Source: an uncultured bacterium
GTDB lineage: Bacteria; Cyanobacteriota; Vampirovibrionia; Gastranaerophilales; Gastranaerophilaceae
Assembly (NCBI GenBank): GCA_902760645.1
Contig: CACWHC010000014.1
Span: 40,017 to 104,016, forward strand
Reading direction: 5' to 3'
Length of the DNA stretch: 64,000 nt
The position numbers were made by a program, and so were the translations under genes. The notes under the pieces are model-generated. The model saw only the letters and a list, made by a program, of their open reading frames with translations. It did no database searches and was not told the DNA's origin. Positions 37,897-40,812 of this stretch are shown piece by piece; the first letter of the stretch is position 1, and every line of letters starts with the position of its first letter.

Positions 37897-38986
37897 ATGA
37901 CAGTATTTCAACCTAGGGGGGGGGGGCAAAACCTCTCGCAGTAAGGGTTTACAGGCATTCACATTAGCAGAAGGTGCTACGCACGTAGCTCAGTCTGCAA
38001 AGCCTCGTCGTGCCGCGTTTACTTTGGCTGAGGTTTTGATAACATTGGGTATTATCGGAGTTGTCGCGGCGATAACGTTACCTGCATTGATAGAAAATGT
38101 TACGGAGAGAAAAAACTCCGAACGTCATGCAAATATAGTGTATAAAGTTACTCAGGCAATGGATATAATGAAAGCACACGGTGAACTCAGCGGAACATAC
38201 CCGACAACCGAAGCCTTTGTTGATGAACTGCAAAAGTATTTAAAAATTTCAAAACGCTGTGACAGCAACCACATAGCCGACTGTTGGCCGACAGACAAAG
38301 TAACAGACGGTGAGGGGAATGAGTTTGAAGTAAGCAAAGCCAAAACAGGTAAAAACTTATCTCTGAATACGAATACAAACAATGTAGGTTTAATCTTGGC
38401 AGACGGTGCATCAATAATACTGAATTACAACCCTGACGGCGGTAAAATAGATGATACTGACCCGTTAGTAGCAGTAAAAAAATCACTACCTGTCGGCGGA
38501 GGAAGAAGTAAGGAGTTTGTTTATACATCAAATTCAACGGCATCAATAGATTTTGTGACAGATGTAAACGGCTCGGCTCACCCTAACGCAGAAACCTCAA
38601 ATAACCAATTCCACGATATAAGAAACCTGACTGCCGCAAGATTTACAAAAGGTTGTGCCGGCACAGAACTTTCAGGTATAGGCTGTGTAGTAAATGTAGG
38701 AACAAGCTATGACCCTGTAAGTGAAGCACCATATACAAGCAACAACAATTATTGGGCAGGAGCAAAGAAGAAGTGTGAAAGTTTAGGCATGACTTTACCT
38801 GATAAAGAAACGTTAGTAAACATAGCCAACAAAAGAGCAAGCAACCCTAACCTCCCACAGACAGGCTGGTTCTGGTCTTCCTCAGAGCTCTATACAATCA
38901 CCGCATGGGGCGTTAGTTTCGATAGTGGGATCGAGTACGGCTACGGCAAGTACAATCAACTCGGGGTTCTTTGTGTAGGTAATTAG
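37897..38986 (+). CDS. Pilin-like protein, probable DGR target, currently out of frame
   Basis: ATG 37897 has GGAGG eight bases upstream and reads MTVFQPR before an 11-G tract (37916-37926). With 11 Gs the frame stops at 37942; with 10 or 13 Gs it continues for ~362 aa: GKTSRSKGLQ, AFTLAEGATHVAQSAKPRR, AAFTLAEVLITLGIIGVVAA. So the gene looks intact but switched off by slippage, or the tract is miscounted. The pilin helix is followed by a globular region and a C-terminal lectin-like (DUF1566/Lcl type) domain: WAGAKKKCESLGMTLPD, GWFWSSSELY, ending GVLCVGN. The last ~120 bases look like a DGR variable region. An Avd-like gene follows. Confidence 0.75.
37916..37926 (+). repeat. Poly-G tract of 11, contingency site
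   Basis: Eleven consecutive Gs, five codons into the pilin-like gene, in a genome where G-runs are rare. In-frame reading needs 10 or 13 (1 mod 3). Such tracts change length by polymerase slippage. Confidence 0.85.
38862..38985 (+). other. Candidate DGR variable region
   Basis: From GGCTGGTTCTGG to the stop. After SSSE the codons CTC, ATC, ACC, GGC, ATC, TAC, GGC, TAC, GGC, TAC and CTC are scattered between fixed ones (GCA TGG, TTC, GGG, CTT TGT GTA). Most are what results when AAC/AAT codons of a template are changed at A positions, the signature of adenine-directed retro-mutagenesis. The protein pattern WSSSE..AW.V.F..G....K....LCVG is that of C-type-lectin-fold DGR targets. Confidence 0.6.
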
Positions 38987-38988
38987 GG

Positions 38989-39004
38989 TACTACAAACGT
39001 AGTA
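38989..39004 (+). other. Hairpin just after the candidate variable region
   Basis: TACTAC aaac GTAGTA, three bases after the stop, within an outer 8-base inverted repeat AGGTAATT (38977) / AATTACCT (39015). DGR targets often carry a short DNA hairpin with a 4-base loop at this place; the loop here (AAAC) is not the usual GRNA. Confidence 0.45.
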
Positions 39005-39033
39005 ATGGTCGACGAATTACCTATTAATCAATT

Positions 39034-39060
39034 CCCCCGACGCTTCCAGAGCGTCGGGGG
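39034..39060 (+). terminator. GC-rich hairpin between target and avd
   Basis: CCCCCGACGCT pairs perfectly with AGCGTCGGGGG around TCCAG. No T-run follows, so it may attenuate rather than end transcription into avd. Confidence 0.65.
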
Positions 39061-39089
39061 GCGGCGAATGCCAAAAGAGAGAGAAAATT

Positions 39090-39461
39090 ATGGCACAATA
39101 TGACACTTTACCAATATACAAGGCGACGTATGATTTTTTGTTAAGAGTTATGCATGCGATTTCGCATTTTCCTCGTGAATATAAGTATTCACTTGGAGAG
39201 CGTATTCAAAACGAAAGTATTGAACTTGTAATTATGATTTATAAGGTAAATGTTACGAAATCTAAAGTAGAATACCTTAAAAAAATGGAAGAGCAAATTC
39301 AATTAATATATTTGTTATTGAGAATTTCGCATGATATGAAACTTATGCCTACAGAAAAATTTGCGGGAATTGTAGAAATGGTAGACGGTGTCGCAACACA
39401 AGCGAAAGGATGGTTAAGAGCAAACGAGAAAATGCGAGAGCCTGTTAATGCTATGGCTTAA
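39090..39461 (+). CDS. avd: Avd-like DGR accessory protein (four-helix bundle)
   Basis: A 123-aa helical protein matching the diversity-generating-retroelement accessory family: LPIYKATYDFLLRVMHAI, HFPREYKYSLGERIQNESIE, LVIMIYKVN, then LLLRISHDMKL and AKGWLRANEKM. Avd forms a basic pentamer that binds the DGR reverse transcriptase and template RNA. Related four-helix proteins occur in 23S rRNA intervening sequences, but the position directly after a lectin-type target supports Avd. No reverse transcriptase or template repeat follows; rpoD comes next on the other strand. Confidence 0.78.
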   Translation: MAQYDTLPIYKATYDFLLRVMHAISHFPREYKYSLGERIQNESIELVIMIYKVNVTKSKVEYLKKMEEQIQLIYLLLRISHDMKLMPTEKFAGIVEMVDGVATQAKGWLRANEKMREPVNAMA

Positions 39462-39684
39462 CAGGGAGTGTGTTTTTTCATTACGTGGAAGTCGGTATTC
39501 CCTTGAGGAAAACCAAAGTTGAGATAATATCTATGTTGTGATAAATCGAAGTTGTTATATTTGTTATATAAATGTTTGCGTAGCAACGCCAACCTGCCAT
39601 GACGACTTGCTTCCCTTCGAAATCAAAGATTTTTATCACAATGCAAAGGGTGGACAAAAACACCACCGAAAAACGCATAAAAAA
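39462..39684. other. Non-coding stretch after avd with inverted repeat
   Basis: This is where a template repeat would normally lie. I see no copy of the variable region. TTGTGATAAA (about 39536) is inverted as TTTATCACAA (about 39632), with TCGAAG/CTTCGA near the arms, so the stretch could fold as RNA. A 65-aa minus-strand frame here (39481-39678) is not convincing. Confidence 0.5.
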
Positions 39685-39710
39685 ACCGGTTTTTAAAACC
39701 GGCTTTTTTT
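39685..39710 (-). terminator. Terminator of the dnaG-rpoD operon
   Basis: On the minus strand a stem CCGGTTTT/AAAACCGG is followed by TTTTTTT, ending transcripts just after the rpoD stop. Confidence 0.8.
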
Positions 39711-39714
39711 AGAA

Positions 39715-40812
39715 TTATGATTCAACGTATTCTCTAAGACGTTTACTTCTGTTCGGGTGACGAAGTTTTCTTAAAGCTTTAGCCTCAATTTGTCTGATAC
39801 GTTCACGGGTAACACCGAACAACTGACCTACTTCTTCAAGTGTTCTCTGGCGGCCGTCATCCATACCGAAACGTAATCTCAATACGTCACGTTCCCTTGG
39901 AGATAAAGTACAAAGAACTTCTGCAAGGTCTTCTCTTAAAAGTTCCGATGCTACCGTCTTAATCGGAGCGTCAGCTTCTTTATCTTCAATAAAATCACCT
40001 AATCTTGAATCTTCTTCTTTACCGATTGGAGTTTCAAGTGATAAAGGTTCTTGTGCAATCTTAATTATTTCACGAAGTTTTGGAATAGAAACATTCATTT
40101 CAATTGCCAATTCATCTTCGGTCGGTTTTCTTGAAAGTTCCTGAGCTAATCTTCTCGTAACTTTCTTCAATTTATTAATAGTTTCAACCATGTGAACCGG
40201 AATACGAATAGTTCTTGCCTGATCGGCAATTGCTCTTGTAATTGCCTGTCTAATCCACCAAGTTGCATAAGTTGAGAATTTGAAACCTCTTTCGTGGTCG
40301 AATTTTTCTGCTGCACGGATTAAACCTAAATTACCTTCCTGAATTAAGTCTAAGAACAACATTCCGCGACCTACATATTTTTTGGCAATACTTACAACCA
40401 AACGTAAATTCGCCTGAACTAATTTTCTTTTTGCTATAGCACCCGGTGTACCGCCTTCAAGAATTTTTCTTGCAAGTTCTATTTCTTCATTTGCAGAAAG
40501 AAGTTTAATTCTTCCGATTTCTCTCAGGTAAAGTCTGACAGGGTCATCTACAGCTACACCTTTTGGAACTTCAATATCATTAGTTTCTTCATCATGACTA
40601 CCCATCATATAGATATCATCGATATTCATTTTTTGTTCCATTTTTTCGGTAACAATATCTTCAATGTTATCGGTGCTTATGTCCATATTCATATAATTAA
40701 CGTCATTTGCGTCAATATCAAGATTTTCGTCCTCGCTTAATTCGTTTAAGTTAAGATTCTCATCATCCAAAACACTTACTACTGAGGAGTTAGGTTGTCT
40801 TTTTTTAGTCAT
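39715..40812 (-). CDS. rpoD: Primary sigma factor RpoD
   Basis: A 365-aa sigma-70. Region 1.2 [19 protein letters not shown], 2.1-2.4 [34 protein letters not shown] and [17 protein letters not shown], region 4.2 [20 protein letters not shown]. The N-terminal ~95 residues are acidic and low-complexity (region 1.1-like). It overlaps dnaG by eight bases in the classical macromolecular-synthesis operon, so initiation of replication and transcription are co-expressed. Confidence 0.97.

What the first reader, a model, noticed from the sequence alone, without database searches (positions are those of the whole stretch)
38862..39461. A diversity-generating retroelement target (pilin with lectin tail) followed by avd, without its reverse transcriptase
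Seen: the last ~120 bases of the pilin-like gene mix fixed codons with CTC/ATC/ACC/TAC/GGC codons, as expected when template AAC/AAT codons are changed at adenines; the protein ends in a C-type-lectin-like pattern (WSSSE..AW.V.F..G..LCVG); a small hairpin follows the stop; and the next gene is Avd-like. Known: DGRs diversify lectin-fold tips by adenine-mutating retrohoming with RT, Avd and a template RNA. Inference: this is a trans-acting DGR target, placing variable lectin tips on a type IV pilin-like fibre.
Basis: partly seen in the sequence, partly recalled or inferred. Interest (0 to 1): 0.92.

Follow-up and report, generated by a model that had tools for sequence, protein, structure and literature searches.

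The report
Hypermutated lectin-tipped pilin, mutator lost
A gut bacterium related to cyanobacteria carries six scattered pilus genes whose sticky tips look rewritten from one shared template by a targeted-mutation machine that is missing from its genome assembly, and five of these genes also sit behind a slippery run of Gs that looks like an on/off switch.

Summary
Window 38018-38986 is a type IV pilin with a C-type-lectin-fold tail. Bases 38864-38979 are a diversity-generating retroelement (DGR) variable region; 39090-39461 is avd. Five more pilins in this genome carry the same variable region. Against the template of relative G287, three copies vary at 29 of 40 template-A columns and 2 of 74 others. 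G287 keeps target, avd (89% identical), template and RT, with 11 dispersed variable regions, 9 in recognisable pilins. The window's genome (99.76% complete) shows no RT and no template. Sequence after avd follows relatives' avd-template spacer, then departs before the template, so template and RT were probably deleted. The window thus shows past, not demonstrably present, diversification; RT-less Treponema denticola isolates are a published parallel. Unexpected: an SD-ATG-G11 leader precedes this pilin, out of frame. All 31 tracts of nine or more G in the genome follow a start codon, 29 lie upstream of pilins, and in 26 exactly one tract phase opens into a pilin. This suggests phase variation layered on DGR diversification.

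The parts
37897..37926 (+). Leader: ATG (37897) preceded by CGGAGGA ribosome site, then G11 tract 37916-37926; out of frame with the pilin as assembled, in frame with one G fewer
38018..38986 (+). Type IV pilin from the F of FTLAEVL to the stop, DGR target
   Evidence: PF07963, TIGR02532 over cut-off
38864..38979 (+). DGR variable region (116 nt), end matching the 3' end of relatives' template
39034..39060 (+). Hairpin, 11-bp stem, 5-nt loop, after the variable region; a hairpin of other sequence stands at the same place in G287
39090..39461 (+). avd
39462..39566 (+). Remnant of the avd-template spacer; match strong to about 39542, weaker pieces to about 39566; template and RT absent beyond

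Best explanation
The window holds the remains of a DGR cassette: target pilin, hairpin, avd, and the spacer that precedes the template in relatives, with template repeat (TR) and reverse transcriptase missing just beyond about 39566. While complete, one TR served at least six dispersed type IV pilin paralogues: adenine-mutagenised cDNA overwrote the last ~116 coding bases, changing the ligand face of a C-type-lectin-like tip on a pilin. Shown: six copies, A-specific variation, homogenised non-A positions in three of them, avd, conserved spacer, intact equivalents in relatives. Inferred: that TR and RT were deleted in this lineage or strain, that one TR of its own served all six, that the pilins assemble into a fibre, and that the tips bind varied ligands. 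In five of the six genes the start codon is separated from the pilin frame by a 10-11 G tract, which I infer to be a slipped-strand on/off switch.
For: Five further pilins 80-84% identical to the window's, with divergent tails. A-column variability 29/40 vs 2/74 for window, C4a, C26 (p=8e-16); 34/40 vs 14/74 for five copies (p=4.8e-12). Non-A third positions in the variable region vary at 1 of 34 against 106 of 269 backbone third positions in the same three copies (p=4.5e-6). Backbone pS 0.33-0.47, pN 0.03-0.09; variable region pS 0.08-0.17, pN 0.24-0.35 in the five pairs examined. G287 C10: VR differs from TR at 20 of 40 A and 0 of 76 non-A positions, and an RT follows; avd 89% identical. G287 genome: its TR finds 11 other places, 205/440 A vs 32/836 non-A sites changed, pilin motif in 9 of 11, the other two run off the stored sequence. 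Window spacer after avd aligns to those of relatives, best E=2.5e-12. avd dN/dS about 0.05 against G287. C-type lectin fold: 8oks_A Z 12.6, 8q4e_A Z 12.0.
Against: No TR of this species was seen, so A-specificity is measured against another genus's TR and among paralogues, whose columns are not independent. C16, C9 and same-genus G6_C3 add non-A differences (14 of 74 with C9 and C16, 21 of 74 with G6_C3 too); C4b was left out of the column test because of its two-codon insertion and differs most. NCBIfam Avd score is under its cut-off. Of eight relatives compared, L075 and L154 gave no spacer match at E<=1. The genome is a 29-contig assembly, so absence of TR/RT is absence from the assembly. 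avd is intact, which fits recent loss or continued use equally.
Confidence: 0.85

Rival explanations
1. The DGR is still active: TR and RT exist in the cell or population (unassembled or unbinned DNA, or sister cells with an intact cassette) and go on rewriting the six pilins.
For: avd is intact with dN/dS about 0.05; non-A positions of window, C4a and C26 are nearly identical (2 of 74), so homing was recent relative to pilin divergence; G287 has one TR and 11 dispersed variable regions. Precedent, passages read: structural variants with and without RT/TR coexist in Thiohalocapsa PB-PSB1 (PMC10907252).
Against: Genome 99.76% complete; no RVT_1, no DGR RT, no TR, no second spacer copy; the contig runs uninterrupted from avd to the sigma-70 gene.
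Confidence: 0.3
2. No DGR: the tails are ordinary lectin-like adhesin tips diverged by positive selection or gene conversion.
For: Pilin tips often evolve fast (recalled); gene conversion can homogenise flanks.
Against: Changes concentrate at columns that are A in a relative's template, within codon position 1 (13/17 vs 1/21) and position 2 (14/19 vs 0/19) separately, three copies; avd adjacent; intact cassettes with the same tail in relatives.
Confidence: 0.02
3. For the G tract: not phase variation but programmed slippage, a leader peptide, or homopolymer assembly error.
For: 16 of the 26 classified tracts need one G fewer, a skew; the five DGR-target copies are all in that state, as shared descent or a programmed shift would give.
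Against: The other 10 of 26 are in the two remaining states, 5 in frame and 5 needing one more G; different leaders in other genera show the same one-phase arrangement; spacers of 30 or more codons are open in the pilin frame in 18 of 20 loci, in the two other frames in 0 of 40.
Confidence: 0.2

Closest known systems
Treponema denticola multi-target DGR and its RT-less isolates (PMC4891356, passages read)
   Same: One TR and up to seven dispersed targets with lectin-fold tails; isolates with 0 RT and 0 TR that keep 2-6 targets, read by the authors as likely leftovers of DGR loss.
   Different: 62% of those targets encode lipoprotein signals; here they are type IV pilins, and avd plus the spacer before the template remain.
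Bacteroides DGRs acting on type V pilus tip pilins (Macadangdang et al.; only a sentence of the review PMC12632263 read)
   Same: DGRs diversify tip pilins in gut bacteria.
   Different: Type V pili of Bacteroides; here type IV pilins of Gastranaerophilales, in many dispersed copies.
Thiohalocapsa PB-PSB1 DGRs (PMC10907252, passages read)
   Same: Degenerate loci missing RT or TR, trans targets, structural variants.
   Different: Targets are putative conflict-system sensors, not pilins.
C-terminal domains of Legionella Lcl (8q4e) and Bdellovibrio Bd2740 (8oks)
   Same: Best structural matches of the tail (Z 12.0 and 12.6).
   Different: Other proteins, 17-21% identity; no DGR link examined here.
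Poly-G phase-variable pilus genes of Neisseria such as PilC (PMC5953494 seen in a search listing only; details recalled)
   Same: G tract near the 5' end of a coding sequence linked to pili.
   Different: Here 26 pilin genes of one genome; length variation in a population is not yet shown.

Membership tests
Diversity-generating retroelement | Variable region with changes confined to template adenines | tested here: met
   29/40 A vs 2/74 non-A columns among three own copies with the TR of relative G287; weaker with more copies (34/40 vs 14/74); same-species TR not available.
Diversity-generating retroelement | Template repeat | tested here: not met
   VR DNA searched in the own genome at E<=10 gave six VR-bearing pilins and short weak matches, one of them a solo VR end; the avd-TR spacer occurs once. 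Present in relatives.
Diversity-generating retroelement | DGR-type reverse transcriptase | tested here: not met
   0 RVT_1 matches; 0 matches with a relative's RT. In relatives 21 of 21 RT loci examined carry [ILV]GxxxSQ (the motif as a DGR mark is recalled).
Diversity-generating retroelement | Accessory protein Avd | tested here: met
   PF22296 over cut-off, PHROG Avd E=3.5e-24; NCBIfam under cut-off.
Diversity-generating retroelement | C-type lectin fold carrying the variable residues | tested here: met
   Model residues 210-322 match C-type lectin folds; block pLDDT 66-92 from residue 241 on, 41-62 in parts of 211-240; whole model 66.
Diversity-generating retroelement | Retrohoming activity | not testable with these tools
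   Needs reads or an experiment.
Type IV pilin | Prepilin cleavage/methylation signal and N-terminal helix | tested here: met
   PF07963 24.9 bits over 21.2; TIGR02532 19.8 over 16.3; helix 3-53 in the model, pLDDT 49-75.
Simple-sequence phase-variable gene | Repeat tract near the start of the reading frame that sets the frame | tested here: met
   SD-ATG-G11 leader; pilin opens only with one G fewer.
Simple-sequence phase-variable gene | Tract length polymorphism within a population | not testable with these tools
   No reads on hand.

The most novel reading that the evidence does not exclude
Gastranaerophilales bacteria hold a large type IV pilin arsenal under two stacked diversity engines: a DGR that rewrites, in trans and from a single template, the lectin tips of up to about a dozen dispersed pilins, and poly-G slipped-strand switches that decide which pilins each cell makes. 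In the window's lineage the DGR core has been lost or become strain-variable while the written repertoire and the switches remain.
Probability: 0.6. Interest if true: 0.85.

Novelty: new variant of a known kind. Interest (0 to 1): 0.72.

Why it matters
As I recall, most described DGRs have one target beside the cassette. Here a dispersed type IV pilin family looks rewritten from one template, in gut bacteria known mainly from metagenomes. If the poly-G tracts switch, the same genes combine random tip rewriting with random expression, loosely like an immune repertoire. The RT-less genome beside an intact relative also offers a natural comparison of a repertoire with and without its mutator.

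Tried and rejected
An A-tolerant scan for a template inside the 64-kb window found no candidate. A remnant of the RT after avd: permissive tblastn on 38971-39800 gave only chance-level pieces, best E 0.14. The one RVT_1 protein of same-genus G006 was set aside as not DGR-like by eye (GAPTS motif); the RT-bearing G005, G006 and G009 gave no match to the DGR RT, while same-genus G008 gave weak ones (32%, E 2.4e-18) that I did not read further. G006 has three near-full and two short variable-region matches but no avd over cut-off and no DGR RT match; G010 has avd and RT but no DNA match to this variable region. Avd relatives in IMG/VR: 11 pattern matches, none confirmed. A 17-base piece of the variable region hit five viral contigs; none showed the pilin motif, searched on the strand of the match only, or a DGR RT motif on either strand: chance. 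In the TR/VR pair scan of 25 loci 10 gave a pair and 15 none; I dropped L145 because its 'template' is not AAC-rich; L157 is a Treponema locus with a non-pilin target. C4b, G6_C15 and G6_C5 were left out of the column test because their lengths differ.

The hairpin after the stop could serve homing or regulation; the other five own copies were not searched for one, so its role is open. In one search the L137 stretch I gave did not hold the whole hairpin; one search repeats it with the right one (z -4.9). An earlier count gave 25 of 31 tracts with a pilin phase; the table gives 26.

Papers: the library holds no paper with both 'diversity-generating retroelement' and 'Melainabacteria' or 'retroelement' and 'Gastranaerophil'. 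It covers open-licence PMC papers; supplements were not searched, so listing in large DGR surveys (for example PMC8144416, passages only) is not excluded.

Full report
What is there. The window lies on contig C14 of a 1.96-Mb, 29-contig genome, 99.76% complete. Between a methionyl-tRNA synthetase and a sigma-70 gene stand a type IV pilin (signal at 38018, stop 38984-38986), a hairpin (39034-39060) and avd (39090-39461).

The tail is a DGR variable region. The own genome holds five more pilins with the same kind of tail, at C4:160-344, C26, C9, C16 and C4:95320. Among the six, bodies are 78-90% identical in DNA and tails 54-78%. With the template of G287 as yardstick, window, C4a and C26 vary at 29 of 40 A columns and 2 of 74 others (p=8e-16); adding C9 gives 32/40 vs 8/74, adding C16 34/40 vs 14/74, adding same-genus G6_C3 34/40 vs 21/74. 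For the three copies the contrast holds within codon positions 1 and 2 separately. It runs opposite to the backbone, where third positions vary most (169 of 269 among five copies, against 51 and 34 for positions 1 and 2). Silent positions inside the variable region are homogenised: 1 of 34 non-A third positions against 106 of 269 in the backbone. Repeated overwriting from one template would leave this behind; the less regular C9, C16 and C4b may have been refreshed longer ago (inference).

Intact relatives. G287 C10 has target tail, hairpin, avd, TR and RT in order; VR and TR differ at 20 A positions and no others. G312 has the same order with a complete pilin target; 18 of 19 differences lie at A. 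In a scan of 25 avd or RT loci, 10 gave a TR/VR pair and nine are credible; in five of these (L132, L136, L140, L143, L154) the target ORF carries a pilin signal; in L130 and L137 the ORF is cut by the contig end, L155 has a short ORF, L157 is a non-pilin Treponema target. Searching G287 with its own TR found 11 variable regions on 11 contigs, one being the cassette's own target: 205 of 440 A sites and 32 of 836 non-A sites changed; nine are recognisable pilins, two run off the stored sequence. G312, searched the same way, has only its neighbouring target, so many targets is not the rule everywhere. The G010 DGR RT as query matched 71 of 383 family genomes at 1e-5, among them weak matches to RTs that need not be DGR ones.

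What is missing in the window. No RVT_1, no DGR RT, no TR, no second copy of the spacer. After avd the sequence follows the relatives' avd-TR spacer: best match E 2.5e-12 to L130 over 64 nt; 6.8e-7 to L131, L136 (to about 39542) and L137; further short pieces reach about 39566 at E 0.001-0.004; L075 and L154 gave none of eight compared. It then departs before the TR. The simplest reading is a deletion of TR and RT. avd shows dN/dS of about 0.05 against G287, so loss is recent, or the gene is still used with partners outside the assembly. T. denticola isolates with targets but no RT or TR are the published parallel (PMC4891356); mixed populations with and without RT are another (PMC10907252).

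How it probably works. From DGR biology (recalled, and passages of PMC8144416): the RT copies the template RNA with errors at adenines and the cDNA replaces the variable region of the target. The tail folds as a C-type lectin domain (Foldseek 8q4e_A E=8.4e-4, the only match at or under 0.001; VIA Z 12.6 to 8oks_A over 95 residues, 1.9 A). Only the last ~80 residues of the model are confident; the N-terminal helix expected of a pilin is present at pLDDT 49-75, and the middle is poor. A pilin fibre or its tip would so present varied binding faces. Fibre assembly and ligands are untested.

A second layer. The pilin's ribosome site and ATG (37897) lie upstream of an 11-G run (37916-37926), the only G or C run of seven or more in the window; as assembled the ATG is out of frame and the pilin opens only with one G fewer. 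Genome-wide, 82 overlapping nine-G matches make 31 tracts; 0.67 were expected from the window's dinucleotides, and 29 of 31 lie within 650 nt upstream of one of 52 pilin matches on the same strand. All 31 follow a start codon (one TTG, the rest ATG) with an SD-like sequence within 45 nt, against 840 of 18,982 random control positions for ATG. In 26 exactly one of three tract lengths opens into a pilin: 5 as assembled, 16 with one G fewer, 5 with one more; five give none. Of those five, L196 and L216 do have a pilin, in another frame than the leader, L206 and L219 have pilin-like sequence without the motif, and in L197 I saw none. Control: where tract and pilin are 30 or more codons apart, the pilin frame is open in 18 of 20 loci, the two other frames in 0 of 40, any reverse-complement frame in 1 of 20. 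Five of the six DGR-target pilins have the tract and are all out of frame by the same step; C4b has none and starts in frame. The pattern SD-ATG-G9 occurs in 16 of 116 family genomes; the reversed-pattern control is zero in all but one (G110). Of 20 loci read from that search 15 open into a pilin in one phase; without three repeated sites and one of the own genome it is 11 of 16. Of the five that do not, two (G014, which has the most matches) are cut by the contig end, one (G021) has a pilin in an interrupted frame, one (G037) opens into a 343-aa non-pilin ORF, and one is G110. No tract of eight or more G was seen near the targets of G287, which has the intact DGR, so the two layers are separable. 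Cautions: the skew towards one out-of-frame state, shared descent of leaders, and homopolymer assembly error.

Novelty. DGR targets with putative pilin structures have been mentioned (PMC6642488 passage) and tip pilins of type V pili are DGR targets in Bacteroides. I found no paper in the searched library on DGRs in this order; a four-of-six-term search on phase variation, pilins and this group returned four papers, none of which held both 'phase variation' and 'Gastranaerophilales' by its counts. The library covers open-licence PMC papers only. I rate it a new variant of a known kind. Odds were kept on checking, except that the confidence in the best explanation went from 0.87 to 0.85 because the spacer match is strong only to about 39542.

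Noticed in passing
G000 genome-wide; window 37897-37926: 31 poly-G tracts (9-13 G), each just after a start codon; 29 upstream of type IV pilins on the same strand; in 26 exactly one tract phase opens into a pilin. Looks like a phase-variable pilin family.
   Followed up: partly
L226-L245 (mostly other genera of the family): Different leaders with SD-ATG-G9+ likewise open into pilins in one phase (11 of 16 distinct sites outside the own genome); 16 of 116 family genomes match the pattern.
   Followed up: partly
L229 (G037:C8:78332-81371): A G11 leader that, with one more G, opens into a 343-aa ORF without a pilin motif; by eye it resembles a nucleotide-sugar epimerase, so the switch may not be limited to pilins.
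   Followed up: no
G000, 52 places: A large type IV pilin family: 52 matches to the window pilin, most covering only the N-terminal region.
   Followed up: partly
L014:158-1285 and other pilin leaders (L039, L043, L120): Dispersed repeat sequences (translated as HPELVSGSSH..., MPKQVRHD and the like) sit inside or next to pilin leaders and lengthen the way from G tract to pilin.
   Followed up: no
G000:C13:75951-75983 (L126) and G006:C9:67427-67457 (L116): Solo 3' ends of the variable region; no pilin ORF was seen around the first, the second sits in sequence without the rest of the tail; possible dead targets.
   Followed up: partly
L075 (G010:C29): Same-genus genome with avd and DGR RT overlapping by about 10 bases; no TR/VR pair and no AAC-rich template-like stretch found on that 10-kb contig.
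   Followed up: partly
Contig ends in G014 and G287: Several contigs end within about 400 bases of a poly-G leader (G014) or a variable region (G287 C8, C13, C17), so these repeats probably break the assemblies.
   Followed up: no
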